Below, piece after piece: positions 5,773 to 56,763 of a stretch of 64,000 nt of DNA. Under the pieces are notes generated by a model, which ran no database searches, was not told the origin of the DNA, and was given only the letters and a program-made list of their open reading frames with translations. Both the position numbers and the translations under genes were made by a program. Source of the stretch: Alphaproteobacteria bacterium. Its GTDB lineage: Bacteria; Pseudomonadota; Alphaproteobacteria; Rs-D84. Location of the stretch: assembly GCA_017505705.1 (NCBI GenBank), contig JAFVOS010000007.1, forward strand, positions 1-64,000, read 5' to 3'. Position 1 is the stretch's first letter. Every line of letters begins with the position of its first letter.

Positions 5773-5891
5773 CTGCCTAATCCAAACGGTCAGTTTTTTC
5801 GTTATCTCTTGTTGTTTATTTTATCCCAGTTTTCTGGCACATGTCAACAGCAAAATAGTGCCGAATTAAAACCACCGTTTACATTAGCGGT
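5773..5891. repeat. Inverton A: 99-bp inverted-repeat element upstream of a Cys-rich gene
   Basis: CTGCCTAA (5773-5780), two bases, a 19-bp arm (5783-5801), 61 bp, and an inverted 19-bp arm (5863-5881) are followed after two bases by a degenerate copy of the outer box (TTAGCGGT). The arms share AAACGGT/ACCGTTT and match at 11 of 19 positions. The gene-side arm matches the perfect arm of inverton C at 16 of 19. Spacing and internal order equal those of inverton C. The degenerate distal arm may mean it is locked. Inversion itself is an inference. Confidence 0.5.
5818..5847 (-). promoter_or_regulatory. Promoter inside inverton A, pointing away from the gene
   Basis: On the minus strand TTGACA (5847-5842) lies 18 bases before TAAAAT (5823-5818). 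It fires leftward, away from the gene at 5912. If the element were inverted it would fire rightward, with a transcription start about 60 bases before the ATG. Confidence 0.55.
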
Positions 5892-5911
5892 CACAAGAAA
5901 CGGGGGATTTT

Positions 5912-6682
5912 ATGAAAAAGATTTTCATTTTATGTTCAGGTTTAATCTTAGCACCATCAACTGGATGGACGGGCGCTGTATCGGCATATATAGCTGGGTC
6001 TTGTGGTGGAATCCAATCAAATTCATCTATGCAGCTATTGTGTGATGATCCGATACAAAGTTGTACATCGACAGGTGTAGGTGTTATTACGGATGGTACA
6101 TATAAAAATTATGATAACTGTGTAGTAAATAGTGCGAACGTGATTCTTTGTTTCGAAGATACTACTGATGGTGCATTGGCTTGTCAACTGTTGAAGAAAG
6201 GGGGGTGTCATAGCGATTATGTTGGGAATTTGGTGAGTGGGCCAACTACCAGTGCATCTGGAACCGGCAGAACAACAAAAGTGTATACAGAACAATTGGA
6301 GTGTTGTCAAAGTACTACTTGTTCTGGGTACTCGGATGGCACGACTTTATCAGCCGCACCGGGTGCATTATATAGTCATCCAAAGTCATGTGGAACAGAT
6401 GGCACATGCAGTGATCTTGCGCGGGGGATAGTTACCTGTGCAAAGGGATATTTTAGTGCAGCAGGAACTGATTATACGTCTGTATCTTCAAGTGAAAATC
6501 CGGCAACTAAAGCAATTGCTTTGGAATGCACATCGTGCGCAACATATACAAATGAAACAGATGCAACCACTGCTGGGCTCAGATCAACCAGTGCCAGTTC
6601 TTGTTATGTGCCGGCTGGTCACAGTGAAACGGATACAACAGGTACGTGGCAGTTTACAGCAAATTGTAATTATACACCGTAA
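5912..6682 (+). CDS. Cysteine-rich secreted protein, 256 aa
   Basis: The protein has a signal peptide (MKKIFILCSGLILAPSTG) and then a Ser/Thr-rich, cysteine-rich exported region with many CxxC-like spacings (CCQSTTCSGYSDG, ECTSCATYTNETD). I do not recognise a named domain. Layout and composition match four other secreted proteins in this window (31696, 32692, 54858, 55777). GGGGG lies eight bases before the ATG. It is a single gene, bounded by inverton A upstream and a terminator downstream. As sequenced, the nearby strong promoter points away, so it may be silent. A surface role is inferred. Confidence 0.8.
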   Translation: MKKIFILCSGLILAPSTGWTGAVSAYIAGSCGGIQSNSSMQLLCDDPIQSCTSTGVGVITDGTYKNYDNCVVNSANVILCFEDTTDGALACQLLKKGGCHSDYVGNLVSGPTTSASGTGRTTKVYTEQLECCQSTTCSGYSDGTTLSAAPGALYSHPKSCGTDGTCSDLARGIVTCAKGYFSAAGTDYTSVSSSENPATKAIALECTSCATYTNETDATTAGLRSTSASSCYVPAGHSETDTTGTWQFTANCNYTP

Positions 6683-6687
6683 AAATC

Positions 6688-6710
6688 AAATGCCCCATTA
6701 TGGGGCATTT
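6688..6710. terminator. Bidirectional terminator
   Basis: AAATGCCCC-ATT-A-TGGGGCATTT is a nearly perfect palindrome between the convergent Cys-rich gene and nrdG. Confidence 0.8.
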
Positions 6711-6716
6711 AATAAA

Positions 6717-7418
6717 TTATTCACGCCATGTGACAGACTTAAACATTGATTCTATTTTTGTCCGCAGGGCAGAATCGTTAAAAAACTGTTCACGTGCCGC
6801 AGAATCTGTTTTGTTGTTTTCGTCTTCAAAGTGTGGGATATATTTCTGAATTGCAATATTTGCAACATTGCGTGTGTGCAAAATTTCTGCAATTTCAAGT
6901 AAATCAGATTTTGTGATAAATCGGGGATCGGTTGTTATTCGAACCTCAAAGTCTTTGCCGGTGGCATTCCATATATCTAATGTTTTTATCATATTGTCGT
7001 ATGCAATATGCTGGCCGGTCAGATCGGGATATTTTTCACGTGTTGCCTTGAAATCCAGTCCAATCCAATCAATCGTGTCCAATGCACGACGCAATGTTTC
7101 TGGATAGAATCCATTGGTGTGCAAGCCTATTTTAAATCCCATGTCACGTACACGACGCATGTATTCAATGGCCGCATCTGATTGCATTAACGCTTCGCCA
7201 CCAGAAAATACAACAGCTTCCAGTTTGCCTGTTCTGGATTGCAACCATTCAAATACCCGTTCTGGGTCATATTCACCGTCATGTGGGGTTAATAAATGGG
7301 GGTTGGAACAATATGCACATCGCAATGGACATCCAACAAGAAACAGTACCGCAGCCAATTTCCCAGGATAGTCAATTGTGGTGAACGAAACCAATCCCCC
7401 GATCTGTACAGCTTTCAT
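6717..7418 (-). CDS. nrdG: Anaerobic ribonucleotide reductase activase (radical SAM)
   Basis: NrdG is a radical SAM enzyme that installs the glycyl radical on NrdD. The cluster motif CPLRCAYC (CX3CX2C) is at about residues 30-37. It is followed by the SAM-binding FSGGEALMQ and the strand motif IGLHTNGFYP. At 233 residues it is longer than the shortest NrdG proteins and resembles the NrdG/PflA-like type that extends beyond the core. It ends the nrdD - tail - nrdG operon, so activase and both substrate pieces are co-expressed under the NrdR boxes upstream of nrdD. Confidence 0.92.
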   Translation of the reverse strand: MKAVQIGGLVSFTTIDYPGKLAAVLFLVGCPLRCAYCSNPHLLTPHDGEYDPERVFEWLQSRTGKLEAVVFSGGEALMQSDAAIEYMRRVRDMGFKIGLHTNGFYPETLRRALDTIDWIGLDFKATREKYPDLTGQHIAYDNMIKTLDIWNATGKDFEVRITTDPRFITKSDLLEIAEILHTRNVANIAIQKYIPHFEDENNKTDSAAREQFFNDSALRTKIESMFKSVTWRE

Positions 7419-7422
7419 ATTA

Positions 7423-7602
7423 TTATGCTGCTTTCTTTAACAGTTCAGCATGTCGGCAACCTGCAGTCAGGCAATTTGGTTCTGTAAATGTTTTGCGTTC
7501 ACAGAATTCTGAATATTTGCCAATGTTAAAGTTTGATACAGGACGAATAAATCCCATAGAGCGTGAAAATACTTCGCAACGTGTTCTTTGGCAGTTAGTC
7601 AT
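7423..7602 (-). CDS. Separate glycyl-radical tail of NrdD, 59 aa
   Basis: The peptide carries CEVFSRSMGFIRPVSNFNIGK and SEFCERKTF. This corresponds to the extreme C-terminus of single-chain class III reductases, where the Gly of the S/T-R-x-x-G-Y/F motif holds the radical. Here it is a separate reading frame with its own start (ATG at 7602) and a strong GGGAGG nine bases upstream, 46 bases after the nrdD stop. The preceding chain ends at the zinc ribbon and lacks this motif. So the radical is inferred to sit on a small partner subunit. An ancestral frameshift made into a split gene is the other reading. Confidence 0.85.
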   Translation of the reverse strand: MTNCQRTRCEVFSRSMGFIRPVSNFNIGKYSEFCERKTFTEPNCLTAGCRHAELLKKAA

Positions 7603-7648
7603 AGCGTGTTTCCTCCCTTTCTTTGTTTGCTGACTGTTAATTAAATTC

Positions 7649-9673
7649 CTAGGCCTGATTTGCGCCGTTTTCGGCATCGCATTTCGGACAGAATTCATGT
7701 TTGCCCGGCAGATATCCATGTTTTGGACAAATCGAGAATGTTGGTGTCAGTGTCATATATGGCACCTTGTAATTTTCGAATATTGTTCGGACAATCTTTT
7801 GTGCGGCATCGCCACTGGATACCGGTTCACCCATATACAAGTGCAACATTGTTCCACCGGTATATTTACGCTGTAATTCTTCCTGGTGTTCCAGGGCAAC
7901 GAACGGATCGTCTGTAAAATTCACAGGTAATTGGGTCGAATTTGTGTAATATGGGGCGTCTTTGGTTCCAGCAGTGATGATGTCTGGAAAGTTTTTGACG
8001 TCTGTTTTTGCAAAACGATATGAACAACCTTCTGCTGGGGTGGCTTCCAGGTTGTACAGATTTCCTGTTTGTTCCTGGAAATTAGCCAGGTTTTCACGAA
8101 TGAAATCCATAACATCCAAAACCAATTTTTTTCCGAATACGGTTGCAATGTTGTCTGTACCGTTTGTAAAGTTCAGAACCATTTCATTGGCACCATTTAC
8201 ACCAATGGTTGAAAAGTGATGATTCCAATCACCCAGATAGCGACGTGTAAATGGATACAGACCACGTTCCATATTCTTGGTGATAATCTTGCGCTTGATT
8301 TCCAGGCTGTCGCGTCCCAGATCCAGCAGGCGTTTTAATTCGCGGAATAAACCTTCGCGGTTACCACGATGTATATAACCCAATCGTGCCAGATTAATCG
8401 TCACAACGCCAATAGAACCAGTCTTTTCTGCTGAACCAAACAAGCCACCACCACGCTTTAATAATTCACGTACATCCAAACGCAGACGACAGCACATAGA
8501 ACGGACATCTGTTGGGTTCAAATCAGAATTCAAGAAGTTCTGGAAGTTTGGAATTCCATATTTTGCCGCTAATTCAAACAATGGCTTCACATTTGGGTGA
8601 TCCCATGGAAAATCTGGCGTGATATTGTATGTCGGAATAGGGAATGTAAATGGACGGCCCAGGGCGTCACCTTCGGTCATTACTTCGATAAACGCCTTGT
8701 TGATCATGTCCATTTCGGTCTGAAGGTCGCCATATGTGAAGTCAACCTGTTTGCGGCCAATAAATGGGCGCTGTTCACGTAAATCTGTTGGGCATGTCCA
8801 ATCAAATGTAAAGTTGATAAATGGTGTTTGTGTGCCCCAACGACATGGTACACCACAGTTAAATACCAATGTTTGCATCGCATTTTTTACATCTGCATAT
8901 GACAGATTATCAATACGTACATATGGTGCCAAATATGTGTCAACAGACGAGAACGCCTGGGCCCCGGCAAATTCATTTTGTAATGTGCCAAGGAAGTTTA
9001 CCATGTGGGATATGGCGGTGGCCATGTGTTTGGCAGGTTCGCAATGCAGATAGCCTGGTACACCATTGAATCCTTCGTATAATAATTCACGCAGTGACCA
9101 ACCTGCACAATAACCTGTCAGCCAACCCAAGTCGTGTACGTGGATTGCAGCATTCTTGTGTGCTTCGGCAACAGCACGTGGATACAGGTTTAACCAGTAT
9201 TCTGCAGTCACACGTTCAGATGTACGTAAAATCAATCCACCAATTGAATATCCAACATTTGCGTTTTCTTTGATGCGCCAATTTGATCCGCCAACGTATC
9301 CTTCAATTATGTCAACAGCATCAACCATTGATTCACGAATTTCTGTGCGCTTTTGGCGATAGATAATATATGATTCGGCTGTTTTATAAGCGCCATTATC
9401 CATCAGTGTTCTGATAACTGTGTCTTGAATTTTTTCAACAGATGGCATAGTTTCAATAAACTCCTGGGCCAGTGTGTCCAGTACAGACTGGGTGATAGAT
9501 ATCACCTGTTCTTCGGATAATTCTGTTGTGACGTCAACAGCACGTTTGATTGCGTTATAAATCTTTTTCGCATCAAATGGGACAGTTTCGCCACTGCGTT
9601 TTTGAACAGCGACCAATTTTGTCGTTAATGTAGGTGTTATTTCAATTTTTGTTTCAATATGTGTTTCTGACAT
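7649..9673 (-). CDS. nrdD: Anaerobic ribonucleoside-triphosphate reductase, catalytic chain
   Basis: This enzyme makes deoxynucleotides from NTPs without oxygen. Residues 18-105 form an ATP-cone (VQKRSGETVPFDAKKIYNAI). The barrel includes FNCGVPCRWGTQTPFINFTFD, FPIPTYNIT and CCRLRLDVRELLKRGG. The chain ends with a zinc ribbon of two cysteine pairs (SICPKHGY, EFCPKC) and stops at residue 674. The glycyl-radical segment is encoded separately just downstream. CGGAG lies eight bases before the ATG. Tandem NrdR boxes lie immediately upstream. No class I or II reductase is in the window. Confidence 0.96.
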   Translation of the reverse strand: MSETHIETKIEITPTLTTKLVAVQKRSGETVPFDAKKIYNAIKRAVDVTTELSEEQVISITQSVLDTLAQEFIETMPSVEKIQDTVIRTLMDNGAYKTAESYIIYRQKRTEIRESMVDAVDIIEGYVGGSNWRIKENANVGYSIGGLILRTSERVTAEYWLNLYPRAVAEAHKNAAIHVHDLGWLTGYCAGWSLRELLYEGFNGVPGYLHCEPAKHMATAISHMVNFLGTLQNEFAGAQAFSSVDTYLAPYVRIDNLSYADVKNAMQTLVFNCGVPCRWGTQTPFINFTFDWTCPTDLREQRPFIGRKQVDFTYGDLQTEMDMINKAFIEVMTEGDALGRPFTFPIPTYNITPDFPWDHPNVKPLFELAAKYGIPNFQNFLNSDLNPTDVRSMCCRLRLDVRELLKRGGGLFGSAEKTGSIGVVTINLARLGYIHRGNREGLFRELKRLLDLGRDSLEIKRKIITKNMERGLYPFTRRYLGDWNHHFSTIGVNGANEMVLNFTNGTDNIATVFGKKLVLDVMDFIRENLANFQEQTGNLYNLEATPAEGCSYRFAKTDVKNFPDIITAGTKDAPYYTNSTQLPVNFTDDPFVALEHQEELQRKYTGGTMLHLYMGEPVSSGDAAQKIVRTIFENYKVPYMTLTPTFSICPKHGYLPGKHEFCPKCDAENGANQA

Positions 9674-9697
9674 TTTAATACTCCGATACTATTAAAA

Positions 9698-9772
9698 ACA
9701 CAATATATAGTGATTGTTTGTTTGATTTGATATCAATATATAGTTTTTGCTGTAAGTAAACAATATATAAAA
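9698..9772 (-). promoter_or_regulatory. Tandem NrdR boxes in front of nrdD
   Basis: CAATATATA occurs three times, at 9701, 9734 and 9761. The first copy sits in ACACAATATATAGTGA (9698-9713), a close match to the NrdR operator consensus. The first two are 33 bp apart, the three-helical-turn spacing typical of NrdR pairs. A palindrome TTGATATCAA (9727-9736), made of FNR-like half-sites, overlaps the second box. The remaining AT-rich stretch to 10096 shows no gene that I can support. Confidence 0.7.
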
Positions 9773-10096
9773 CGTAATTTTTTTTGTATTTTTTACTTTA
9801 CTTTTAAAAAGGTTAATTTTCCGCATGGTATAGCAATAAAACAGAATCGGTGTTTTCATACGAAATTAGCTTTTGTGTAAACTTTTTTGTTTTTTAGGCT
9901 CATGAACTGATTCGTTTTTTATGGGCAAATACAAAATATAGATAAAAATTTCGATTCGGATACTATATGTTGACGATAAAAAGTGGCGTTTGTCTAAAAT
10001 AGGTTGTGTTTCTTATAAAAAACGGGCATAGTAGTATGTGTGTCCGGGGTAATAAGGCTGCGGATATACTTAACATATAAAATAAAGAGCATTATT

Positions 10097-11686
10097 ATGA
10101 TTAAGAATATATATGAAATGCTGCACCAGGTTTGTGAGCAGAACAAAGATCGTATTTTCTTTGTCAGACAAAATGAAACCTATGCAGATTTGTTGAAAAA
10201 GGTAAAACAGCGTGCTGTGTTATTAGCGAAACGTTTTGGTATCAAAAAGGGTGATACGGTTGCAATTCTGTCGGGCAATACACCGGACTTCGTACGTTCA
10301 TACTTTGCGATTACATCACAGGGGGCACGTGTTTTGATGTTGGATACTGGTTTGCAAACAAATGAGCACATCAATATGATGAAGCGCACAGATTGCAAGC
10401 TGATATTAGCACAGAAACACTACTTTATGGATGATGCACCAGCAGAGTTGTTTGATATCGAATCAATCGATGATACCGATGAAAATGATTTTGTTATGGC
10501 CAAGACTGAACGCAGTGATATTGCACAATTGTCTTTTACGTCGGGATCAACCGGTAATCCAAAGGTTGTTGGTTTGACACACAATAATCTGTTGTCTTTG
10601 TGTGATGGTGCACAATTCTATAAAGATGTAATATTTCCAGGGTATACGTTCTATGGATTCTTGCCGTTGTATCATATATATGGTGTGGTAATTAATATTA
10701 TTGTGCCTGTATGCTTACAGGGAAAACTGTTGTTGCAACCGGTGCTAAAACCACAAGAATTTTTAAAGGACTTTAAGCAATATAAACCAGAAGTAATCCC
10801 TGCTGTCCCACGTATTTGGGAAGTGTTTTATAAAAAGATTGTAGATGCAGCACGTGCAAAGCATGCATGGACACTGATGCGTGTGGTTGTATCGCTGCGA
10901 CATGTGTTGCGTGCAATTGGACTGGGTGGTGTTGTGACCAAGGTGACAAAACCGATACATGACTTGTTCGGTGGAAATACCAAGGTGTTGGTTTCAGCAG
11001 GGGCAACATTGAAACCATCGATTCGCAAATTCTATGAAAGATTGGGATTTGTTGTTGGTGACTGCTATGGCTTAACAGAAACAACGGGACCGGGGAACTT
11101 TAACTTTGCTTTCCGTCGTGCAAATGGCCAGATGTATTATGCAGGACCATTGTTGGGTAACGAATTGAAGATTCATAATCCAAATAAAGATGGAATTGGT
11201 GAAATTTGGATTCGTGGAAACATGGTTATGCCAGGCTATATTGATAATGACGAAGCAAACAAGGCGGCATTTGAAGATGGTTGGTTTAAAACAGGTGACA
11301 TTGGAATGCTGGATAAAAAGGGGCGTTTGGTTGTAAAAGGACGCCAAAAGCAAGTTATTGTTTTAGACAGTGGTAAAAATGTTTATCCTGATGAATTGGA
11401 AGATCTGTATATGCAGAATGATGAAATATTGGCTGCAGCAGTATTTGAATATACGTTGAAAGGAAAAATTGTCCCATATGCTGTTTTTCAGGTAAAGCCG
11501 GGGACAACAATTGAACGTGTTTCAATGCTGATTAAAAAGTCTAATTTGGCAGTTGCGCAGTATAAATGGGTAAAGCATTTTGCGATTACCGAAGAAGAAT
11601 TGCCACAGACATCTGCAAAAAAGATTAAGCATTTTGCAGTGCGTGAAATGCTGGAATCTGGTGCATTCTTGCGTGCAGATAAATAA
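10097..11686 (+). CDS. AMP-binding acyl-CoA synthetase / ligase
   Basis: This is an ANL-superfamily adenylate-forming enzyme, probably activating a fatty or other carboxylic acid. The P-loop-like AMP motif is LSFTSGSTGNPKVVGLTH at about residues 153-170. The A5 region is DCYGLTETTGPG, the hinge motifs are WFKTGDIG and VVKGRQKQVIVLDSGKNVYP, and the C-terminal lysine lies near LPQTSAKKIKH. I use the ATG at 10097, giving 529 residues, because the upstream GTG extension has no sensible sequence. The substrate cannot be told from the sequence. It stands alone, with its own terminator. Confidence 0.88.
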   Translation: MIKNIYEMLHQVCEQNKDRIFFVRQNETYADLLKKVKQRAVLLAKRFGIKKGDTVAILSGNTPDFVRSYFAITSQGARVLMLDTGLQTNEHINMMKRTDCKLILAQKHYFMDDAPAELFDIESIDDTDENDFVMAKTERSDIAQLSFTSGSTGNPKVVGLTHNNLLSLCDGAQFYKDVIFPGYTFYGFLPLYHIYGVVINIIVPVCLQGKLLLQPVLKPQEFLKDFKQYKPEVIPAVPRIWEVFYKKIVDAARAKHAWTLMRVVVSLRHVLRAIGLGGVVTKVTKPIHDLFGGNTKVLVSAGATLKPSIRKFYERLGFVVGDCYGLTETTGPGNFNFAFRRANGQMYYAGPLLGNELKIHNPNKDGIGEIWIRGNMVMPGYIDNDEANKAAFEDGWFKTGDIGMLDKKGRLVVKGRQKQVIVLDSGKNVYPDELEDLYMQNDEILAAAVFEYTLKGKIVPYAVFQVKPGTTIERVSMLIKKSNLAVAQYKWVKHFAITEEELPQTSAKKIKHFAVREMLESGAFLRADK

Positions 11687-11709
11687 TGTGCGATTCGAAG
11701 CATAAAAGA

Positions 11710-11738
11710 AACTGGGGCAGAAAAACCCCAGTTTTTTG
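11710..11738 (+). terminator. Terminator after the acyl-CoA synthetase
   Basis: AACTGGGG - 8-base loop - CCCCAGTT is followed by TTTTG. Confidence 0.8.
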
Positions 11739-11747
11739 TCTTGTATA

Positions 11748-12347: not shown

Positions 12348-12365
12348 AAAGTTTTAAGAATAGTG

Positions 12366-12787: not shown

Positions 12788-12864
12788 GCATCCATAGCTT
12801 AACTGGATAAAGCATCTGACTACGGATCAGAAGACTGAGGGTTCGAATCCTTCTGGATGCGCCA
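12788..12864 (+). tRNA. tRNA-Arg(ACG), attachment site of the integrated element
   Basis: This is a 77-base tRNA with encoded CCA. The acceptor GCATCCA pairs with TGGATGC, the anticodon loop CTACGGA gives ACG (12822-12824), and the T loop is TTCGAAT. The last 45 bases also form the 3' end of the recombinase gene on the other strand. Confidence 0.97.
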
Positions 12865-14415
12865 CTTCTTTATTTCCCCCACATTTTCATCAAAAACATT
12901 GAAAATTGGCGCCAATTTCGGTGTTCCAAATTTTTCTGCAAAATCATATGAAATTTGCTCAGGAAAACACAAGTTTAGAACACCCTGCCGTTTTTTGAAG
13001 TTCCCTGTGCGCCAAATATCCAATGGTCGGCGTATAAACTGCAAAACATATTCTGTCGCCTGGTCAAGTGGCATGGTTTCTATTTCCTGAACCTGCTGTT
13101 CATCGGTCAGTTGTTGTATTTGTGCCGTCAGCATGCTGATGCGTTCCTGGCACATTGAAACAACCTCTGGCGGATTATTCGGGTTCATTAACAAATTGAA
13201 CGCCTGGGTCTTTTCCCGTTCTTTCTGCGCAATCAACGCCTGCCGTTCCGCAACACGCTGCTGCGCATCAGCCGTTTGTTCTTCATAAGCCCGTTGAATT
13301 GCACGCCCAGCCAGCGCAATAAAGCGCTGGTCTGGGGTTATTTTTTCCAAAATACATTCCAGGTCCTGATGTATTTCGCTGGGCTTTATGCCTTTGCCAT
13401 ACATGGGGCACCCCTTGCAATAACAATGATAATACAAAAAGCGCTTGCCACCTTTGCCTTTTGGCCGACTGGCAGTCAATGGTTTTCCGCATCTCGCACA
13501 CCTAACAAAGCGGCGCAATGGAAATGTTTCATCTTCTGTATTATATTGCCGCGTCACCTTTTCATTCATGCGACCACCGTTCAACCGTTCCTGAATGGCA
13601 CGATAAGTTTCCACTGAAATCAACGGTTCCATTGCCCACTTCTGATATGGGATTCCCCATCGTGGGTAGGCAAAATATCCCGTATATTTTTCATTGGTCA
13701 ACAAGTTATGTATCGCATTATAGGTTAAACGAAATGGTCGTCCATCCCTGTAAAGACTTAGCGGCTTGTCCCGTAAATATTCATACACATCCCTTTGTGT
13801 CAGAAAACGGCACGACGCAAAACCCTCCAGCGCAGTTTGAATAAATGTCGCTGTTGGCTCATTGCGCACTTGATGCATGCGCCCATTCTTGCGAACTTCT
13901 TTTAAGCCCACAGGCGGTCGCATAACCCAAAAGCCCTGTTTTGCATGCTCAATCATGTTGTTTTTCGTGCGTCCCGCATTCTTTTTGCGTTCATATTGAC
14001 TTAATGCTGCCGATACATTTTCCAGCAATTCGCTTTCATCCGTATCTTCCAGCGTCATATTCACGGTCTGCAACGAATGCCCCATTTTGCGAATTTGTTC
14101 GCGCAAAATGCCATGAACGACCACATCACGGGCAAATCGGTTCAAATCGTATGCCAAGACAATATAATTCTGGTCTGTTTCGGACAAGAATTTCAGCATT
14201 TCATTAAATGCAGGCCTGTCTTGTTTCGCCCCTGAAACACCTGGTTCCACAAACACACGGTCCACAGGAAATCCCCGTTGTCTTGCCCATGCACGGCACG
14301 TTTGTTCTTGGCTGTCCAGGCCTTGGCCCTCTGTCACCTGGCGGCGGCTGGACACACGACAGTAAATAACAACCCTTTTGGGGCATTCTTGATTTAATAT
14401 TTTATTTTTATACAT
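12820..14415 (-). CDS. Large serine recombinase (integrase)
   Basis: This catalyses site-specific integration and excision. The N-terminal resolvase domain (about residues 12-160) starts VVIYCRVSSRRQ, with the nucleophilic Ser, and contains VLAYDLNRFARD. The recombinase domain follows (NAIHNLLTNEKYTGYFAYPRWG), then a zinc ribbon CARCGKPLTA...CYCKGCP, then a coiled coil (QRVAERQALIAQKEREK). AAGGAG precedes the ATG. The last 14 codons and the stop lie inside tRNA-Arg, the stop overlapping the anticodon. Excision would therefore change the C-terminus. Confidence 0.95.
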   Translation of the reverse strand: MYKNKILNQECPKRVVIYCRVSSRRQVTEGQGLDSQEQTCRAWARQRGFPVDRVFVEPGVSGAKQDRPAFNEMLKFLSETDQNYIVLAYDLNRFARDVVVHGILREQIRKMGHSLQTVNMTLEDTDESELLENVSAALSQYERKKNAGRTKNNMIEHAKQGFWVMRPPVGLKEVRKNGRMHQVRNEPTATFIQTALEGFASCRFLTQRDVYEYLRDKPLSLYRDGRPFRLTYNAIHNLLTNEKYTGYFAYPRWGIPYQKWAMEPLISVETYRAIQERLNGGRMNEKVTRQYNTEDETFPLRRFVRCARCGKPLTASRPKGKGGKRFLYYHCYCKGCPMYGKGIKPSEIHQDLECILEKITPDQRFIALAGRAIQRAYEEQTADAQQRVAERQALIAQKEREKTQAFNLLMNPNNPPEVVSMCQERISMLTAQIQQLTDEQQVQEIETMPLDQATEYVLQFIRRPLDIWRTGNFKKRQGVLNLCFPEQISYDFAEKFGTPKLAPIFNVFDENVGEIKKWRIQKDSNPQSSDP

Positions 14416-31589: not shown

Positions 31590-31698
31590 CTGCCTAAAAT
31601 AAAGGGACGTTTGGATTCGTCCTTTTTATTTTTATAAATTTCCCAGAATTCTGCATATTTTTCTCCCTTGATTACTGCCTAAAATAAACGTCCCATTG
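31590..31698. repeat. Inverton B: 99-bp element at the start of a Cys-rich gene
   Basis: CTGCCTAA (31590-31597), two bases, arm 31600-31618, 61 bp, inverted arm 31680-31698, two bases, then TTCGGCGG (6 of 8 bases like the outer box). The arms share a perfect 9-bp core, GGGACGTTT/AAACGTCCC, and match at 13 of 19. The core differs from that of inverton C, yet both arms carry the same changes. CTGCCTAAAATAAA is also directly repeated (31590 and 31675). On paper, inversion gives the downstream gene an AGGGAG site, an ATG and 18 in-frame codons. Confidence 0.6.
31601..31633 (+). terminator. Orientation-dependent terminator inside inverton B
   Basis: AAAGGGACG (31601-31609) and CGTCCTTT (31618-31625) pair over an 8-base loop and are followed by a T-rich run (TTTTTATTTTT in part). 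Flipping the element separates the stem from the T run, so termination would occur only in the present orientation. Confidence 0.6.
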
Positions 31699-32667
31699 TT
31701 TTCGGCGGTGATTGGGGTGCTGATGTTGTTTTCGACGGTTTCAGATGGGGTGGCGACAACAGACGCATTGTGTGGAAAAACGTGTGGCACAAATTCTTCA
31801 ACACAAAATTTTTGTAATGACCCCAGTTTGTGGTGTGGATCTTCTTATGTAAATGTAGGTGGCAACGATACTTATTTAAATTGCATGCCGTTGCAGGGAG
31901 ATTGCCGAACCATAACAACATCAACATATATTGTGTGCTTTCAGAATGAATCTGATTGTCAAAATCGTAACTGGACGGTTAGCAGTTCTGGCAGAGAATT
32001 TTCAGCAGGTATGAAATGCAGTGCGGTTGGCGCAAAAACAACAGTTTATGGTGGGTACAACATGTGGCGTTGTGGGCCGGGATATTATAATACCAAAGGT
32101 ACAGAGTTTACAGCAGGTTCATCTTCTTCATCAATAACGTGTAATTTATGCCCGGCGGGAACATTTGGCGCAACATCTGGATTAAGTACCAGCACATGTT
32201 CGGGAAAATGTGCCAAGGGTTCATACACCAGCACCGCTGGTCAAACCGCTTGTACTGCATGCCAAAATGGCACAACAACATCTGCCGCTGGTCAAACCAG
32301 CTGTGACGCAACATGTGCCAATTATGGATACGTTAATGCATGGAATACCGCCACATGGAATTCTGGTAACACGATGACTAATTTATGTTCTGCAAAAAAC
32401 TGCAAAGCAGGAATGCGAAAGTCTTCCACAACCTGTGCCCCATGTGCAGCCGGCACATACATGGCCAGCAGCGCCCACACAAATACAGCATGCACCACAT
32501 GCCCCAAACATACATCCAACAGCGGTACCACCGTCAGTGGCACAACATTGTACGCAGGTTCTACATCCGTTACCGAATGTTATCTAACGGCAAACAGTGG
32601 TGCCACATGGTCAGACACAACCGGGGAATACGATTGTCCAACGGAAAATGCATCATACACAAACTAA
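31696..32667 (+). CDS. Cysteine-rich secreted protein with an incomplete start, 323+ aa
   Basis: As sequenced the frame begins at a TTG with no ribosome-binding site, inside a signal-peptide hydrophobic core (FSAVIGVLMLFSTVSDGVA). A CTG at 31675 is the only other choice. With inverton B flipped, the frame would begin ATG and read MQNSGKFIKIKRTNPN then VPLFSAV, a normal signal peptide. The mature part has repeated CPAGT-like units (CNLCPAGTFGATSGLSTSTC, CAKGSYTSTAGQTAC), as in GCC2/GCC3 or ephrin-receptor-like modules. It is probably a surface protein. An operon partner follows 24 bases later. Confidence 0.75.
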   Translation: MFSAVIGVLMLFSTVSDGVATTDALCGKTCGTNSSTQNFCNDPSLWCGSSYVNVGGNDTYLNCMPLQGDCRTITTSTYIVCFQNESDCQNRNWTVSSSGREFSAGMKCSAVGAKTTVYGGYNMWRCGPGYYNTKGTEFTAGSSSSSITCNLCPAGTFGATSGLSTSTCSGKCAKGSYTSTAGQTACTACQNGTTTSAAGQTSCDATCANYGYVNAWNTATWNSGNTMTNLCSAKNCKAGMRKSSTTCAPCAAGTYMASSAHTNTACTTCPKHTSNSGTTVSGTTLYAGSTSVTECYLTANSGATWSDTTGEYDCPTENASYTN

Positions 32668-38316: not shown

Positions 38317-38339
38317 GAAATTAACCATAATAAATTATC

Positions 38340-38399
38340 TAAAAGCAAATCGGGCATCTTATGTAGCGTCTGTACACTATGATGCCCGATTTGCTTTTA
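38340..38399 (+). terminator. 19-bp perfect inverted repeat after clpB
   Basis: TAAAAGCAAATCGGGCATC (38340-38358) and its exact inverse (38381-38399) enclose 22 bases. The right arm ends CTTTTA. The arms are longer than those of the other terminators here. I read it as the clpB terminator. Confidence 0.6.
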
Positions 38400-38454
38400 T
38401 CTAAATCATTCTATGTAATTTTTTATCCAGCGGCGGGGGCGGAGTTGTTTTTGT

Positions 38455-51134: not shown

Positions 51135-51152
51135 GGTATAAAATAGCATAGC

Positions 51153-51758: not shown

Positions 51759-51777
51759 TTTTTAATTGGGGGATGGT

Positions 51778-52632
51778 GTGAAAAAAGTTTCTTTGATTTG
51801 TCTGTTGGGATTGTTGCCATTATCGGCATTCGCAGAAGGTGATGATGCCAGCTTGGTTTTGTCTGTGCGTCGTATCGGGTTGGAACTATCGCAAACCCAG
51901 GTTCGTAATGCCAATGAATACAAGAATTCGCCTGTGTCTGTATTGGCGGCGGACAGTCAAGAATTTATAAAGGGTGTATTTGATACAGCATTAGAATACA
52001 AGAAAAATCGTTTCCAATGGGATAATACACTGTTTATGGAATATGGGGAAACCAAACTGAAACCCGAAGATGGGGAAACGACATCCAGTGAAAATGCTGA
52101 TGATATATTGTTGTCCAGTAATTTGGAATATGAATGTTGGGAATTTTCAGGATTTAAGTTTGGTCCGACTGTTCGTGCGGCATATGATACTGAATTTGTG
52201 ACAACAGGTGATGCACCACGACAGAATATTGTTCGTGCCAATGCTGGTTTATCACTGTTTGACAACAAGGTTGTAAAAAGTCTGTATCTAACCGGCGTGT
52301 ATGAATATGATTTTACATATTCCGATAATAAAATTTCAAAAACCGCTGCAGAAGTGGGGTGGCGTTTAGAATATGAAGTGCGTGATGGGGTAAAGCTGTC
52401 GTCTAATGGATATTATCGTGAATATTTGGCATATTCTAGTTATGAGGAAACAGACTTGGAACGTGATTTAAGTGCGGTTGCACGTCTGGATACGAATTTA
52501 TGGGGCGATTTGACATTGGGGCCGTATGTTCAATATCGTCGTGCACGTGCACGTGGTGTGGATGTATACGGCAGTAATTTTATTGTTGGTATATCATTTA
52601 ACTATATCACTAAGTTTGGTCTGATAAAATAA
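51778..52632 (+). CDS. Outer-membrane beta-barrel protein, 284 aa
   Basis: The GTG at 51778, five bases after GGGGGA, begins MKKVSLICLLGLLPLSAFA, a good signal peptide. The TTG at 51766 would lengthen it without benefit. The sequence resembles DUF3078/DUF481-type barrels: FQWDNTLFMEYGETKLK, ADDILLSSNLEYE, LTLGPYVQYRRARARG. The stop is followed by a hairpin terminator. It is the third gene of the envelope group. Confidence 0.8.
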   Translation: MKKVSLICLLGLLPLSAFAEGDDASLVLSVRRIGLELSQTQVRNANEYKNSPVSVLAADSQEFIKGVFDTALEYKKNRFQWDNTLFMEYGETKLKPEDGETTSSENADDILLSSNLEYECWEFSGFKFGPTVRAAYDTEFVTTGDAPRQNIVRANAGLSLFDNKVVKSLYLTGVYEYDFTYSDNKISKTAAEVGWRLEYEVRDGVKLSSNGYYREYLAYSSYEETDLERDLSAVARLDTNLWGDLTLGPYVQYRRARARGVDVYGSNFIVGISFNYITKFGLIK

Positions 52633-52638
52633 TGAAAA

Positions 52639-52661
52639 ATCGCCGGATGGCGGTTTTTTTA
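52639..52661. terminator. Terminator between convergent operons
   Basis: ATCGCC-GGAT-GGCGGT is followed by seven T. Confidence 0.75.
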
Positions 52662-52667
52662 TTGCTT

Positions 52668-53696
52668 TTAAGCGCTCCATATTTTTACACCGAACAGATA
52701 CACATGTTTTTCAATTTGGCTGTAGTGAACCGTAGCAATTTTGAATTTGCCGAACAGTTTATAGTCTCGTACAAAATAGGTATTCTGTTTTACGATTTCT
52801 ATAACACCTTTGGGGTCGTTATTCCACAGCGACAACACCAATGAATAATCTTTCTCGATTAAAAAATCTATGTGTCGTAGTGTTTTGAACAACGAACATG
52901 CCGCAGTCGCTAGTTTTATCTGATTGTCTGGTGCAACACGCAATATTCTGTTGCACATAAATAAAAATCGGCGCTCTACAGCGATTTCATAAGACTTTTT
53001 ATCCACAAAAGTTGCCAAATTATAACAGTCAATAATTTTTGCAAGAGACGTTATAAAGTCATCAACTTGTTTTTCACCCCATATTACAGCATCCAACGAG
53101 CCAAAATGTTTCATATAGTGATATGCCGTACCACGTACATGTCTAATTGGTTTTGGCATATGGGTTTTGACCATCGATTCAAAAACAGAATCTTCGCCAA
53201 TGCACAGGTTCGGATAGTGTAAATTATATCTGTTCAGCATGTCACGCAAATAGACCGCTGAATAATGATACTTAAAATGGTGAAAGTTTTCTTTAACAGG
53301 GATATTTATTTTAAATGGTTTTCCTTTTATTGGATGTTCAATAACATCACCGCATACCACAGGCGTCTGGGTCTTTTCAGCGGTTTTGATTAATTTTTTA
53401 TAAAAGTCACTTTCAATCCAGTCGTCTGGATCAACAAAGCCAACAAATTCACCCTGGGCCGCATCGATACCACGATTTCGGCTGTATCCAACACCCATGT
53501 TTTCATCATTTTCCAGAATACGTATACGCAAATCATTCTTGGCGCATAATTTTAGTATTTCCAGTGTATTATCTGTTGATTTGTCATCGATACAGATAAT
53601 TTCCATATCTGTTAAGCTTTGGTTCGTGACACTTAATAAACAGCGGTCAACCCATGGTGCAACATTATAGCATGGTATAATTACAGATAACTTCAT
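52668..53696 (-). CDS. Family 2 glycosyltransferase, 342 aa
   Basis: This GT-A fold enzyme transfers sugar from a nucleotide donor. The N-terminal motifs are LSVIIPCYNVAPWVDRCLLS, IICIDDKSTDNT and the DxD-type FVDPDDWIESDF. The ATG at 53696 has TAAGGTG six bases upstream, made from the end of the previous gene. It is the last gene of the five-gene leftward operon behind inverton C. Confidence 0.9.
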   Translation of the reverse strand: MKLSVIIPCYNVAPWVDRCLLSVTNQSLTDMEIICIDDKSTDNTLEILKLCAKNDLRIRILENDENMGVGYSRNRGIDAAQGEFVGFVDPDDWIESDFYKKLIKTAEKTQTPVVCGDVIEHPIKGKPFKINIPVKENFHHFKYHYSAVYLRDMLNRYNLHYPNLCIGEDSVFESMVKTHMPKPIRHVRGTAYHYMKHFGSLDAVIWGEKQVDDFITSLAKIIDCYNLATFVDKKSYEIAVERRFLFMCNRILRVAPDNQIKLATAACSLFKTLRHIDFLIEKDYSLVLSLWNNDPKGVIEIVKQNTYFVRDYKLFGKFKIATVHYSQIEKHVYLFGVKIWSA

Positions 53697-53706
53697 AGAA
53701 AACACC

Positions 53707-54708
53707 TTAGCCAAAGATTTTCATAAACAGCCACAGTATGATACGGCGACTGCGTTTCAAGTATTTTGTCGGAAAATATTCTGTGCCGTATATTTGTTTT
53801 AATTGTTTTGCGGATTCATACATCATACGACCACTGGCAAGTGTTTTTATAATAAACTCGTACGTTAACATATCTAAATAATTTGCATAGAAATGTTTAT
53901 GATATCGTTTTGAATAATATGTATCCATAATCCAACGCAATCGGTGCATTGTCGGTACAATCCATGTAAATGATTTTTGATTAAATGGCGCAGCCGATAC
54001 AGAACGACGTGCTGCACGATGATATACAACCATTGCACGTGTTTCTATAATACGTCTGGCACGTGGCAGGGCCTCATATATAAAGCATGTATCTTCACCC
54101 GGGTACAGTTGTTCGTCAAAGCGGACATCTTGCAAGACCTCTCGTCGGAACAGTCGGCGCCACACCCACACCAATCGATGGGTTTCCCCCAGATATTCCA
54201 TTTTGATAACATCGACATCGTTAAAGCCCAAGATTACAAATTGTGGGTTTGCATAATTTACCACCGGTGTGTCAGCCAACTTAAAGTCGTCTGGTACCGT
54301 CACCCCACCACCACCGATGATGTCAGCATGGTTTTGTTCACCAACTTCGTATAAAATCTTTAACGCATCAGAATAAAAACAGTCGTCAGAATCCATAAAA
54401 CTTATCCAGCGTCCACGTGCCATATTTAATCCGACATTACGTGCGGCAGATACACCTTTGTTCTCTTGGAACACTGGGATAATACGTGGGTCTTGTTTAG
54501 CCCATCGTTTGATGATGTTTTTTGAACCGTCTGTTGAACCGTCGTCAACGATAATACATTCAAAATCTGTGAATGTTTGTGTGACGATACTGCGGATACA
54601 ATCGTCCAGATAAATATCGTTATTGTAATTGGCGACCAGAATAGATATAGCTGGTTGCTTTTTATTAGATGTATTGTTTTTATTAATTTTTTGTGGGTTT
54701 GGTTTCAT
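53707..54708 (-). CDS. Family 2 glycosyltransferase, 333 aa
   Basis: It has a basic, Asn-rich N-terminus (MKPNPQKINKNNTSNKKQP), then the GT2 core ISILVANYNNDIYLDDCI, CIIVDDGSTDGS and the metal-binding FMDSDDCFYSD. The C-terminal half has RLVWVWRRLFRREVL and YPGEDTCFIYEAL, as in glycan-building GT2 enzymes. It starts two bases after the small Gly-rich gene and ends eleven bases before the next GT2 start. The acceptor is unknown. A surface glycan or the co-transcribed Cys-rich proteins are possible. Confidence 0.9.
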   Translation of the reverse strand: MKPNPQKINKNNTSNKKQPAISILVANYNNDIYLDDCIRSIVTQTFTDFECIIVDDGSTDGSKNIIKRWAKQDPRIIPVFQENKGVSAARNVGLNMARGRWISFMDSDDCFYSDALKILYEVGEQNHADIIGGGGVTVPDDFKLADTPVVNYANPQFVILGFNDVDVIKMEYLGETHRLVWVWRRLFRREVLQDVRFDEQLYPGEDTCFIYEALPRARRIIETRAMVVYHRAARRSVSAAPFNQKSFTWIVPTMHRLRWIMDTYYSKRYHKHFYANYLDMLTYEFIIKTLASGRMMYESAKQLKQIYGTEYFPTKYLKRSRRIILWLFMKIFG

Positions 54709-54710
54709 TT

Positions 54711-54848
54711 TTATTTACCTTGCATTAGTTTATACCATGGCATTTTTTTCAATACCCGTTTACCCCCCCCATATCCACCGACAGACATCCCCCCATTAGA
54801 CCACAGGAATTCTTCAGCTAATTTTTTTATTTTATCTTTGCGCTTCAT
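54711..54848 (-). CDS. Small Gly-rich basic protein, 45 aa
   Basis: The translation begins MKRKDKIKKLAEEFLWSNGG and continues MSVGGYGGGKRVLKKMPWYK. It has a basic helical start, a glycine-rich centre and a basic end. AGG lies eight bases before the ATG at 54848. It fits tightly between a Cys-rich gene (9-base gap) and a glycosyltransferase (2-base gap), which supports it as real. A short peptide with a GG motif could be a modified or exported peptide, but no transporter or modifying enzyme is adjacent. Confidence 0.6.
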   Translation of the reverse strand: MKRKDKIKKLAEEFLWSNGGMSVGGYGGGKRVLKKMPWYKLMQGK

Positions 54849-54857
54849 AATAAAAAC

Positions 54858-55739
54858 CTAATAACTATAATAACAATTTTTTGTTGGATAATAGAAACCC
54901 GTTTTATCTATATTTCCCGCTAAATAGTGTGTTGATGTACAATTTGTTGAGCAATAGCTATTACCAACATAACATTCAGTTATAGCTGATGCACCCGTAG
55001 ACGATGTGTAAACAGCAGCCGCCGTTCCATAATGAGTGTTTCCATATTGAACAAAGACAAAAGATGTGTTGGCAATTGTACCGTATGGACACGATGAACA
55101 GCTTGTTTGCCCTGTTAATGAGTTATAATAGCCTATGCTGCAGGGGGTGCAAGTGTTTCCTCCTGCTTTATATGTGCCTGCCGGACATGGCACGCATTGA
55201 TTGTTAGAAGCTATTTGTCCGGTTGAACATTCCGAACATATTTGTATAAAATAGCTCAAATTGTTCACGGTAGTTGACACCAATTTTTTAATGTAGTTAA
55301 GGTTAGCACAATTACAATCTGTGGATGCGACTATGCCAGCTGGTAATGCAACTGTTCCCATGCATGAGCCTATTGCAAGGTAGGCAGGACCTATGTTTGG
55401 ATAGTCAGCAAAACCGCTAAAGGAACCACAAGTCATTCTATCCAGTGAATTGAACATGGCAACTTCAGTTTCGTTCATACAATAACATCTGTCTGAGCTA
55501 ATACAACCAGAATTGCCTGCTAAATAGAATAGCAAATTATTGCCCCATTTCCCACTTACGTAGGAATTGTTAAGAAGAATACATTGTGAGGCACATCCTG
55601 CATCAGCCAGATTCTGTGTATTGGCCATAGTATGCCAAACCAATGCACATGAAAATCTTGTATTCATGAATATGTTTGTCATAAAACACAATCCGATTAG
55701 TAAAAACCGTTTAAATGGACTTAATTTTATGTTTTGCAC
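54858..55739 (-). CDS. Cysteine-rich secreted protein, 293 aa
   Basis: The GTG start at 55739 has AGAGGA six bases upstream. The signal peptide MQNIKLSPFKRFLLIGLCFM is nearly identical to that of the upstream paralogue. The mature part has unusual Cys-containing motifs (CASQCILLNNS, CYCMNETE, CNCANLNY), then CPAGTYKAGGNTCTPCSIGY and CSSCPYGTIA, GCC2/GCC3 or ephrin-receptor-like units. It is the second gene of the inverton C operon and a clear tandem duplicate. Confidence 0.82.
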   Translation of the reverse strand: MQNIKLSPFKRFLLIGLCFMTNIFMNTRFSCALVWHTMANTQNLADAGCASQCILLNNSYVSGKWGNNLLFYLAGNSGCISSDRCYCMNETEVAMFNSLDRMTCGSFSGFADYPNIGPAYLAIGSCMGTVALPAGIVASTDCNCANLNYIKKLVSTTVNNLSYFIQICSECSTGQIASNNQCVPCPAGTYKAGGNTCTPCSIGYYNSLTGQTSCSSCPYGTIANTSFVFVQYGNTHYGTAAAVYTSSTGASAITECYVGNSYCSTNCTSTHYLAGNIDKTGFYYPTKNCYYSY

Positions 55740-55776
55740 AGTAAATCCTCTAGCTTTTTGTTTTAATCACACGTAT

Positions 55777-56637
55777 TTATTGATACATACAGCTGCCTGC
55801 AAAGTCATACATATGACCATTTTCAGTATAACCGATAAAGATCATAGAAGTTCCTATTTGTTGACCGGTTGTAATTGCTGCGGCATAACATTTTGTAATT
55901 GAATTCGCCCCAGTTGCTGTCAGTATTCCAAATACACAAGTTGAAAATAGACTCGTGTTGCCAGCAACATTCGCCATACACGGCAGGCCTGGACACGGAG
56001 CACATGTTGATAGCCCCGTAGTTGATGCGTATCGTCCGGCGGGACAGGCCGTACAGGTTGATAGCCCCGTAGTTGATGCGTATCGTCCGGCGGGACAGGT
56101 CGTACAGGTTGATAGCCCCGTAGTTGATGCGTATCGTCCGGCGGGACAGACCGTACAGGTTGCCACTGTTCCACCAGCCGAATACCGTCCAGCCGGACAG
56201 TTATAACATGCACTGCCACTCAAATACTTACCCGCTGCACAGGATGTTATTGTTGGCGTGTTACCTGTTACAGAAAACAAACACGCTACTGGTGAAAATA
56301 GTGCATAATTGCTACAATAAACCAAAAGATTTACGCTACCAGTTCTTGCAAGGGTCAACATGGACGCTTCTGTTGCGGAAAAACAATAACAAGCGCTTTG
56401 AATAAAGGAAACAGCACCACAGCTTACATTGGGCCAAGTTAACATTGATGTACCAGATACTACGTTTGGTGCATTTACAGCAGCGCAAATGCTTGCACAC
56501 ACAGTATACATAGATTGATCAGATAGCCCAATGGCATAGGCACCATACGATATTTTTGTGCCCATACATACATTAGATATCAGTACTAATGCAAACATTA
56601 ATAACCGCTTAAATGGACTTAATTTTATGTTTTTCAT
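55777..56637 (-). CDS. Cysteine-rich secreted protein with tandem repeats, 286 aa
   Basis: A signal peptide (MKNIKLSPFKRLLMFALVL) is followed by a Cys-containing N-terminal domain (VCASICAAVNAPN, CYCFSATEASML, paralogous to the next gene). Then come CPAGRYSAGGTVATCTVC and three near-identical 17-residue units CPAGRYASTTGLSTCT-x. The start ATG follows GGGGAAAGAGAA. It is the first gene of a five-gene leftward operon. The promoter within inverton C points away from it as sequenced. Confidence 0.83.
   Translation of the reverse strand: MKNIKLSPFKRLLMFALVLISNVCMGTKISYGAYAIGLSDQSMYTVCASICAAVNAPNVVSGTSMLTWPNVSCGAVSFIQSACYCFSATEASMLTLARTGSVNLLVYCSNYALFSPVACLFSVTGNTPTITSCAAGKYLSGSACYNCPAGRYSAGGTVATCTVCPAGRYASTTGLSTCTTCPAGRYASTTGLSTCTACPAGRYASTTGLSTCAPCPGLPCMANVAGNTSLFSTCVFGILTATGANSITKCYAAAITTGQQIGTSMIFIGYTENGHMYDFAGSCMYQ
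56006..56158. repeat. Three tandem 51-bp repeats in a Cys-rich gene
   Basis: Units begin at 56006, 56057 and 56108. They are identical except for a base or two near the end of each unit. Each encodes one 17-residue CPAGRY module in frame, so unit number could change without breaking the gene. Confidence 0.85.
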
Positions 56638-56654
56638 TTCTCTTTCCCCTATGC

Positions 56655-56763
56655 AAAACGGTGGTTTAGATTCGGCGGTTTTTGATGCTTGACAGTGCTA
56701 GAAATCCTGTGTTAAAATCATGGCAAGTGGTACAGAATCTAAACCACCGTTTTTTTTAGGCAG
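56655..56763. repeat. Inverton C: perfect 19-bp inverted repeat around a promoter
   Basis: AAAACGGTGGTTTAGATTC (56655-56673) and its exact inverse (56735-56753) enclose 61 bp. Two bases beyond the distal arm lies TTAGGCAG (56756-56763), the inverse of CTGCCTAA. The 61 bp begin GGC and carry the promoter at the same position as in inverton A. The gene-side arm ends 17 bases before the ATG at 56637. Confidence 0.7.
56689..56718 (+). promoter_or_regulatory. Promoter inside inverton C, pointing away from the operon
   Basis: TTGACA (56689-56694) - 18 bases - TAAAAT (56713-56718) points rightward, where no rightward gene exists. Inversion would place its start about 46 bases before the ATG of the leftward operon. 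Confidence 0.65.

What the first reader, a model, noticed from the sequence alone, without database searches (positions are those of the whole stretch)
5773..56763. Three elements with identical geometry: CTGCCTAA-N2-19 bp-61 bp-19 bp
Seen at 5773-5881, 31590-31698 and 56655-56763: the same outer box, the same two-base gap, arms of 19 bp, and exactly 61 bp between arms, in all three cases in front of a Cys-rich secreted protein gene. The arm cores differ between loci (GGGACG against CGGTGG), yet the two arms of a locus tend to share the local variant, as expected if arms recombine with each other. Degenerate outer boxes also follow the gene-side arms. This implies one dedicated recombinase acting genome-wide.
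Basis: partly seen in the sequence, partly recalled or inferred. Interest (0 to 1): 0.93.

Follow-up and report, generated by a model that had tools for sequence, protein, structure and literature searches.

The report
Flipping promoters and start codons
In a tiny-genome gut bacterium and its relatives, short DNA segments in front of genes for cysteine-rich, likely secreted proteins occur in both orientations at matching places, and each is predicted to be an on/off switch, likely flipped by one DNA invertase, that turns either a promoter or the beginning of the protein toward or away from its gene.

Summary
The three elements belong to a genome-wide set: 11 found in this 0.96-Mb genome, and many in related Candidatus Enterousia (gut Alphaproteobacteria). 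Box plus arm is one 32-bp dyad site. The two sites of a locus mostly lie 83-86 bp apart, and their central dinucleotide agrees in 91 of 95 distinct loci against 33 expected, the footprint of a serine recombinase. A 207-aa Mpi-family serine invertase lies 1.1 kb beyond the window; orthologs and elements co-occur (elements in 31 of 32 genomes with it, 6 of 64 without). Class 1 segments (5773, 56655) carry a near-consensus promoter, here pointing away from the gene. Class 2 segments (31590) carry a ribosome-binding site, ATG and signal-peptide start, joined in frame to the gene only when inverted. An orthologous locus in two species and one paralogous pair in a genome show the segment inverted between collinear flanks; three more paralogous pairs share inverted segment and downstream flank only. 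Ongoing inversion, catalysis and expression were not seen. Global Mpi-type promoter inversion is known from Bacteroides; the start-codon switch and its use in reduced-genome Alphaproteobacteria look new.

The parts
5774..5805 (+). Element 1, gene-distal recombination site (32 bp; core GT 5789-5790)
   Evidence: dyad half-site model; sequence
5818..5847 (-). Element 1 promoter-like TTGACA-18-TAAAAT, pointing away from the gene (predicted OFF)
5859..5890 (-). Element 1, gene-side recombination site (core AC on + strand, 5874-5875)
   Evidence: sequence
5912..6682 (+). Cys-rich predicted secreted protein, 256 aa, 18 Cys, no Pfam match; likely target of element 1
31591..31622 (+). Element 2, gene-distal site (core GA 31606-31607)
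   Evidence: sequence
31654..31668 (-). Element 2: AGGGAG and ATG pointing away from the gene (class 2, predicted OFF); on inversion they would read in frame into the gene
31676..31707 (-). Element 2, gene-side site (core TC on + strand, 31691-31692), which would be coding in the inverted state
31696..32667 (+). Cys-rich ORF with Ephrin_rec_like domain that as it stands lacks a start with a charged signal-peptide n-region; likely target of element 2
55777..56637 (-). Cys-rich protein, 286 aa, 23 Cys, Ephrin_rec_like domain; likely target of element 3
56646..56677 (+). Element 3, gene-side site (core GT 56661-56662)
   Evidence: sequence
56689..56718 (+). Element 3 promoter-like TTGACA-18-TAAAAT, pointing away from the gene (predicted OFF)
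56731..56762 (-). Element 3, gene-distal site (core AC on + strand, 56746-56747), with the box
   Evidence: sequence

Best explanation
These are DNA segments of about 85 bp between two matching 32-bp sites that occur in opposite orientations at orthologous and paralogous loci, and they are likely phase-variation switches inverted by one Mpi-family serine invertase, of two predicted kinds: one that turns a promoter toward or away from the gene, and one that turns a ribosome-binding site, start codon and signal-peptide beginning toward or away from it. Shown by sequence: site anatomy, narrow spacing, the 2-bp core that matches within a locus, both orientations between collinear flanks (one orthologous and one paralogous pair), in-frame joining on inversion in class 2, co-occurrence with the invertase gene. 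Inferred: that this invertase binds and cuts these sites at the core, that inversion is reversible in living cells, that orientation sets expression, and that cells gain a varied surface from it. In the window all three elements are in the predicted OFF state.
For: Central dinucleotide equal in the two sites of a locus in 91 of 95 distinct loci, 32.6 expected with shuffled partners, with the register set by the outer half-sites only. Spacing 83-86 bp in 26 of 27 exact-arm pairs, control 0. Orthologous locus G029 L325 (ON) against G012 L327 (OFF): flanks 182/200 and 292/300 identical, segment 53/89 as is and 83/87 inverted. Paralogs in G021, L075/L185: flanks 31/40 and 65/70, segment 58/109 as is, 86/88 inverted. 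Three more paralogous pairs (G029 L319/L320 and L321/L284, G048 L316/L278) match inverted (82/86, 80/86, 78/86 against 47/89, 51/90, 47/88) and downstream (88/89, 292/300, 120/120), but not upstream. Class 2: of 78 elements with SD + ATG 50-54 bp before the core end, 72 open a frame of 60 or more codons (40 or more if the contig ends) into the neighbour (56 only if inverted, 9 only as is, 7 both ways); in the 56, median codons open beyond the core are 248 inverted and 7 as is. Invertase: NF009949 (Mpi family), 310.7 bits, cut-off 272. Co-occurrence: genus 31 of 32 against 6 of 64; order 43 of 44 against 3 of 98, two of the 43 from other genera (many genomes are in both draws).
Against: No reads were seen, and no locus of one strain in both states; one genome per species is held, and MAGs can be mixed. 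Predicted OFF dominates (class 1 without G048: 60 OFF, 9 ON of 115; class 2: 56 OFF, 9 ON of 89). 18 of those 115 have no clear promoter (four of them, window 31.6k, L196, L205 and L256, are class 2), and 11 of the 89 lack SD + ATG at the usual place. Of 7 pairs compared only L075/L185 shows the inversion; L094 (OFF) and L214 (ON) have like upstream flanks (39/40) but unrelated segments (52/100 as is, 53/99 inverted); L094/L212 are both OFF, and the other four were too diverged. Matches without a >=75% invertase ortholog: G001, G005, G006, G023, G026, G031 (genus), G150 (order); ortholog without elements: G017, G132. Co-occurrence is not corrected for phylogeny. Four of 95 core pairs do not match: L101 and L188 look like one-base register errors, L260 is unclear, L242 is a real difference; also L320 and L322 in class 2. 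Other recombinases exist in the genome.
Confidence: 0.88

Rival explanations
1. The segments are inverted by another recombinase of the genome, a tyrosine recombinase or one of the two large serine recombinases (one lies in the window at 12820-14415).
For: Six tyrosine recombinase matches and two large serine recombinases are present.
Against: Only the 2 central bases are nearly always identical within a locus (0.97 and 0.98), the two positions on either side 0.75-0.86, whereas tyrosine recombinases need a matched core of 6-8 bp (recalled). Relatives of the window's large serine recombinase occur in 11 of 96 genomes, 6 of which carry elements, so it does not track the elements. The co-occurrence of the other large one and of the tyrosine recombinases was not tested.
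Confidence: 0.06
2. They are fixed regulatory elements or dead mobile repeats (MITE-like) whose orientation differs only through old rearrangements.
For: Most promoters point away from the gene; several elements lie at contig ends; G032 has many near-identical copies.
Against: Where both states were aligned, the change of orientation falls at the core while flanks stay collinear (L325/L327, L075/L185); core dinucleotides agree within but not between loci; class-2 frames stay open; the elements track the invertase.
Confidence: 0.04
3. Opposite orientations are assembly artefacts of repeated sequence in MAGs.
For: Several elements sit at or near contig ends, e.g. L218, L219, L231, L316, L319.
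Against: L325 and L327 have long collinear flanks and open frames that fit their state; L075 and L185 lie inside contigs.
Confidence: 0.02

Closest known systems
Mpi invertase of Bacteroides fragilis and its invertible promoters
   Same: Recombinase of the same NCBIfam family; one master invertase for many distant promoter loci of surface products (13 regions, passage in PMC4747536).
   Different: Alphaproteobacteria with ~1-Mb genomes; mostly Cys-rich predicted secreted proteins instead of polysaccharide operons; a core distance of mostly 83-86 bp; a second class of elements that carries the start codon. Enterousia-type invertases form a clade apart from the Bacteroidota rows (100/98 support, 99 rows).
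vpma/vsp/vsa loci of mycoplasmas (Xer1, HvsR)
   Same: DNA inversion at the 5' end of surface protein genes (passages in PMC2268961).
   Different: There one promoter serves a cluster of silent genes through a tyrosine recombinase, with vpma sites upstream of the start codon; here the genes have small cassettes of their own and class-2 sites would be translated.
cwpV switch of Clostridioides difficile
   Same: Inversion between promoter and gene with the promoter outside (abstract and passages, PMC2784873); class 2 would also need an outside promoter.
   Different: The cwpV segment holds no part of the ORF; the class-2 segment holds SD, ATG and about 17 codons.
Intragenic invertons (Chanin et al. 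2024)
   Same: Inversion changes coding sequence (recalled; only the reference was seen; paper not held).
   Different: Here the inverted part is a standard start cassette repeated genome-wide with one site family.

Membership tests
Mpi-family serine DNA invertase (NF009949) | curated family score | tested here: met
   310.7 bits, cut-off 272, residues 1-198 of 207
Mpi-family serine DNA invertase (NF009949) | resolvase catalytic domain with C-terminal helix-turn-helix, small size | tested here: met
   PF00239 111 bits at 2-143; weak DNA-binding-domain hits at 159-195, CENP-B_N just over and GerE under its cut-off
Mpi-family serine DNA invertase (NF009949) | inverts many distant loci | not testable with these tools
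   Only co-occurrence and the 2-bp core support it
Invertible promoter (inverton) | inverted sites flank a promoter next to a gene | tested here: met
   84 of 115 elements (without G048) have a called promoter and a predicted secreted neighbour gene; the 6 class-1 elements of the own genome do
Invertible promoter (inverton) | both orientations in one population | tested here: inconclusive
   Seen between paralogs of one genome (L075/L185), not within one locus of one strain
Invertible promoter (inverton) | expression follows orientation | not testable with these tools
   no expression data
Tyrosine recombinase switch (fim, Xer1, RecV type) | identical 6-8-bp overlap between the two sites | tested here: not met
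   Identity within a locus is near 1 at the two central bases and 0.75-0.86 beside them; the 6-8-bp requirement is recalled
Hin/Gin-type inversion with Fis enhancer | recombinational enhancer with Fis sites | not tested
   A central CCnGAAAnCnGG-like motif is visible in many elements, but an averaged dyad test gave no peak at the midpoint
Mycoplasma-type expression site | one promoter serves many silent genes | tested here: not met
   Elements have their own segments, most with an adjacent gene

The most novel reading that the evidence does not exclude
One Mpi-type invertase runs two kinds of genome-wide switches over a bacterium's Cys-rich secretome: promoter flips and start-codon flips. In the second, an 85-bp cassette with ribosome-binding site, ATG and signal-peptide n-region is flipped onto a headless gene and the recombination site itself is translated as part of the signal peptide (e.g. 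N-G-G-L-F-S-A). The core dinucleotide acts as a lock and key that limits recombination to partner sites of one locus.
Probability: 0.78. Interest if true: 0.92.

Novelty: new variant of a known kind. Interest (0 to 1): 0.86.

Why it matters
A paper reports invertible promoter loci in other gut taxa, Proteobacteria included, as far less common and far fewer per genome than in Bacteroidales (passage in PMC8748976); here uncultured Alphaproteobacteria of about 1 Mb carry many such loci. The start-codon cassette would be a compact way to switch translation and secretion by DNA inversion. The matched dinucleotide gives a footprint by which the recombinase class of an invertible locus can be read from sequence alone, and it can be tested directly.

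Tried and rejected
The loose pattern had more hits in its reversed control (12) than in the genome (5); not used as evidence. The 19-bp arm as unit was rejected (11, 13, 19 of 19) for the 32-bp dyad site. A strict motif [AG]A[AG]CG-NN-CG[TC]T[TC] was used to look for paired sites in all 80 named loci L102-L181 and found none, not even in Enterousia loci, so it was too strict to tell anything. A fixed central palindrome as operator or enhancer was not borne out by an averaged dyad test. 'At most one ON locus per genome' was considered, but G029 has two ON in class 2 and one in class 1.

Rows dropped or recounted: L231 and L232 (cut by contig ends); the duplicates L072, L076, L113 and L115 and the second, overlapping match of L268/L076; L189 and L201 of the 87 stretches gave no match; L304 and L305 (numbers that fall) were not used, which took 88 loci. 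Four G048 rows counted OFF are class 2; one search gives counts without G048. The class-1 and class-2 sets overlap in at least nine loci (window 31.6k, L207, L258, L205, L196, L085, L256, L211 and L183 are L276, L277, L278, L279, L282, L285, L289, L301 and L303). The >=75% threshold for the invertase ortholog was set after seeing the gap between 75-76% and 66%. In one search one locus falls at 72 bp, which the register does not show.

Literature: searches. Those on Enterousia (10 papers) and on invertible promoters in Alphaproteobacteria showed no title or abstract beginning that describes this; PMC10862772, listed in both of the latter, was not opened. The Enterousia paper opened by 'find' (PMC12306168, passages) has no hit for 'phase variation' or 'invert'. 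Coyne 2003, Jiang 2019 and Chanin 2024 were not held; seen as references only, content recalled.
Full report
OBSERVATION. The three stretches exist as described: 109 bp each, CTGCCTAA, then 2, 19, 61, 19. The arms are 11, 13 and 19 of 19 identical. The window is contig C5:1-64000 of a 962,633-bp genome of 12 contigs. The genus is that of Candidatus Enterousia: locus L106, titled Candidatus Enterousia excrementavium, is 100% identical over 3.6 kb to L056 of genome G018, which has the window's genus code. A paper describes Enterousia as gut Alphaproteobacteria of order Rs-D84 with reduced genomes (passages of PMC12306168).

MORE COPIES IN THE GENOME. TTGACA-N16-19-TAAAAT occurs 15 times in the genome against 4 in the reversed control; six of the 15 lie between the arms of such elements: C1:13.5k, C4:26.6k, C4:29.6k, C5:5.8k, C5:56.7k, C8:18.5k. 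The -35 and -10 boxes are 18 bp apart in all six. In five the promoter points away from the Cys-rich gene, in C4:26.6k toward it. This makes 11.

THE SITE. Box plus arm is one site with two half-sites around a dinucleotide: TGCC[GT]AA-nnn-AAACG-NN-CGTTT-nnn-TTCGGCA, with variants. The class-1 model, built from six elements of the own genome (5 OFF, 1 ON), was searched in 96 genomes of the genus. One search listed only part of its matches and on both strands; from that list and from named loci 123 elements were placed, 121 after dropping two cut by contig ends. With the register set by the outer half-sites only, 113 of 121 are unambiguous and 95 distinct. The two central bases agree within a locus in 0.97 and 0.98 of cases, between loci in 0.60 and 0.43; both agree in 91 of 95, against 32.6 expected with shuffled partners. 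The dinucleotides are GT 52, GA 13, AA 8, AC 7, GC 6, TT 4, AG 3, AT 1, TA 1. The distance between cores is 83-86 bp in 114 of the 121 and in 26 of 27 exact-arm pairs when any distance of 58-108 bp was allowed. The seven others lie at 74, 75, 95 (twice), 96, 107 and 109, roughly a helical turn apart; too few to test.

THE RECOMBINASE. PF00239 has three matches in the genome, one of them small: C5:65132-65755, 207 aa, 1.1 kb beyond the window and 8.4 kb from element 3. It matches NCBIfam 'master DNA invertase Mpi family' with 310.7 bits, cut-off 272. In 96 genomes of the genus, orthologs (76% identity or more) are in 32. Elements (class-1 model at E 1e-3 or class-2 model at E 1e-5) are in 31 of these 32 and in 6 of the other 64 (Fisher p 5e-18, not corrected for kinship). 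Of 40 genomes with only other copies of the family (45-66% identical) 4 have matches; of 24 with none at E 1e-20, 2. In 142 genomes of the order, class-2 matches are in 43 of 44 with the ortholog (75% or more) and 3 of 98 without; two of the 43 are of other genera; many genomes are shared with the genus draw. Relatives of the large serine recombinase in the window are in 11 of 96 genomes, 6 of them with elements.

CLASS 1, PROMOTER SWITCHES. Of 121 elements, 64 have the promoter away from a predicted secreted gene (OFF), 9 toward it (ON), 15 lie between two candidate genes, 19 have no clear promoter and 14 no clear gene. Without G048, whose elements proved to be mostly class 2, the numbers are 60, 9, 15, 18, 13 of 115. 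Gene calls are a simple heuristic (start near the element, hydrophobic N-terminus), and some of the 15 are surely spurious on one side. Of 115 such genes 105 have at least 3% cysteine, median 6.9%. In genome G021 two paralogous loci, L075 (OFF) and L185 (ON), have collinear flanks (31/40 upstream, 65/70 downstream) and segments that match 58/109 as they stand and 86/88 when one is inverted. The other six comparisons do not show this: one pair is OFF in both, L094/L214 have unrelated segments, four are between diverged loci.

CLASS 2, START-CODON SWITCHES. Element 2 has no good promoter. Its other strand has AGGGAG and ATG followed by codons for QNSGKFIKIKRTNPNVP; if inverted they run in frame into LFSAVIGVLMLFSTV of the Cys-rich ORF, which now lacks a start with a charged n-region. 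A model from seven such elements finds matches in 35 of 96 genomes. I placed 89 matches from 28 genomes (at least one, L303, is a class-1 element). 78 have SD + ATG 50, 51 or 54 bp before the core end. In 56 the frame runs 60 or more codons (40 or more if the contig ends) into the neighbour only if the segment is inverted (OFF), in 9 only as it stands (ON), in 7 both ways, in 6 neither (one of these, L319, is cut by the contig end). For 72 of 78, p is 1e-27 against one third, and 9e-13 against five ninths, which allows for two orientations; without the five model elements in the set, 67 of 73 and 1e-11. Of the 72 products 63 have at least 3% cysteine. The core dinucleotides agree in 87 of 89, here with a register that used arm identity. 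The site itself would be read as protein, for example N-G-G-L-F-S-A. The strongest case is an orthologous locus in two species: G029 L325 (ON) and G012 L327 (OFF) share 182/200 upstream and 292/300 downstream, while the segment matches 53/89 as is and 83/87 inverted. In four paralogous comparisons (L319/L320, L321/L284, L321/L322, L316/L278) the segment also matches inverted (82, 80, 78, 78 of 86) and not as is (47-51 of 88-90), with like downstream flanks in three, but upstream flanks are not alike. L312/L347 (upstream 167/200, 71/87 inverted, 57/98 as is) and L351/L279 (62/88, 53/99) are weaker (all).

MECHANISM. Most likely the invertase pairs the two sites of a locus, cuts at the central dinucleotide and rejoins with the 85-bp segment inverted. 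Class 1 would switch transcription. Class 2 would switch translation and export, with transcription from an outside promoter that was not identified. The match of dinucleotides within a locus would favour inversion within a locus over joining of different loci, though GT is shared by many loci. All of this paragraph is inference from anatomy and family knowledge.

AGAINST. No read data or expression data; one genome per species; OFF prevails, and the class-1 model's make-up may favour OFF a little. G017 and G132 have the ortholog without elements; G001, G005, G006, G023, G026, G031 and G150 have matches without it (G006 has a 66% copy). Core mismatches: L242, perhaps L260, and L320 and L322 in class 2. 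Some elements, mainly in G020, G010, G038 and G068, have neither a clear promoter nor an ATG and are not explained.

NOVELTY. Mpi of B. fragilis inverts 13 regions (PMC4747536, passages), so a global Mpi-type invertase is known. The two-class system, the translated recombination site, the narrow 85-bp geometry and its presence in reduced-genome Alphaproteobacteria were not found in the searches named under Tried and rejected, which cover open-licence papers only. I rate it a new variant of a known kind.

Noticed in passing
L194 (G072), L208 (G003), L190 (G057), L077 (G026): Elements between two divergent Cys-rich predicted secreted genes: one promoter could serve one or the other gene, an either/or toggle.
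   Followed up: partly
L268:1352-1556 (G095); L093 (G025): Tandem arrangements: two overlapping element matches that share a site (L268), and a class-2 start cassette next to a promoter switch whose gene-side site no longer matches, so perhaps locked ON (L093).
   Followed up: partly
L084, L206, L208, L214, L190, L230, L194: Rare core distances (74-75, 95-96, 107-109) differ from 85 by about one or two helical turns, as if helical phase matters.
   Followed up: no
middle of many segments of both classes: CCnGAAAnCnGG-like motif near the midpoint; an averaged dyad test did not show a fixed centre. Could be a host factor site.
   Followed up: partly
G032, loci L089 and L217-L228: More than ten near-identical class-1 elements in one genome before different Cys-rich genes, as if the cassette had been copied.
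   Followed up: no
40 of 96 genomes of the genus: Mpi-family copies of 45-66% identity in genomes mostly lacking these elements; they may drive other invertible loci with other sites.
   Followed up: no
window 12820-14415: Large serine recombinase (531 aa) of unknown target; relatives in 11 of 96 genomes.
   Followed up: partly
window 54858-55739 and 55777-56637: Two Cys-rich Ephrin_rec_like genes in tandem behind element 3, so one switch may control both.
   Followed up: no
window 38339-38400: Long inverted repeat around AAAAGCAAATCGGGC with a short loop, perhaps a terminator.
   Followed up: no
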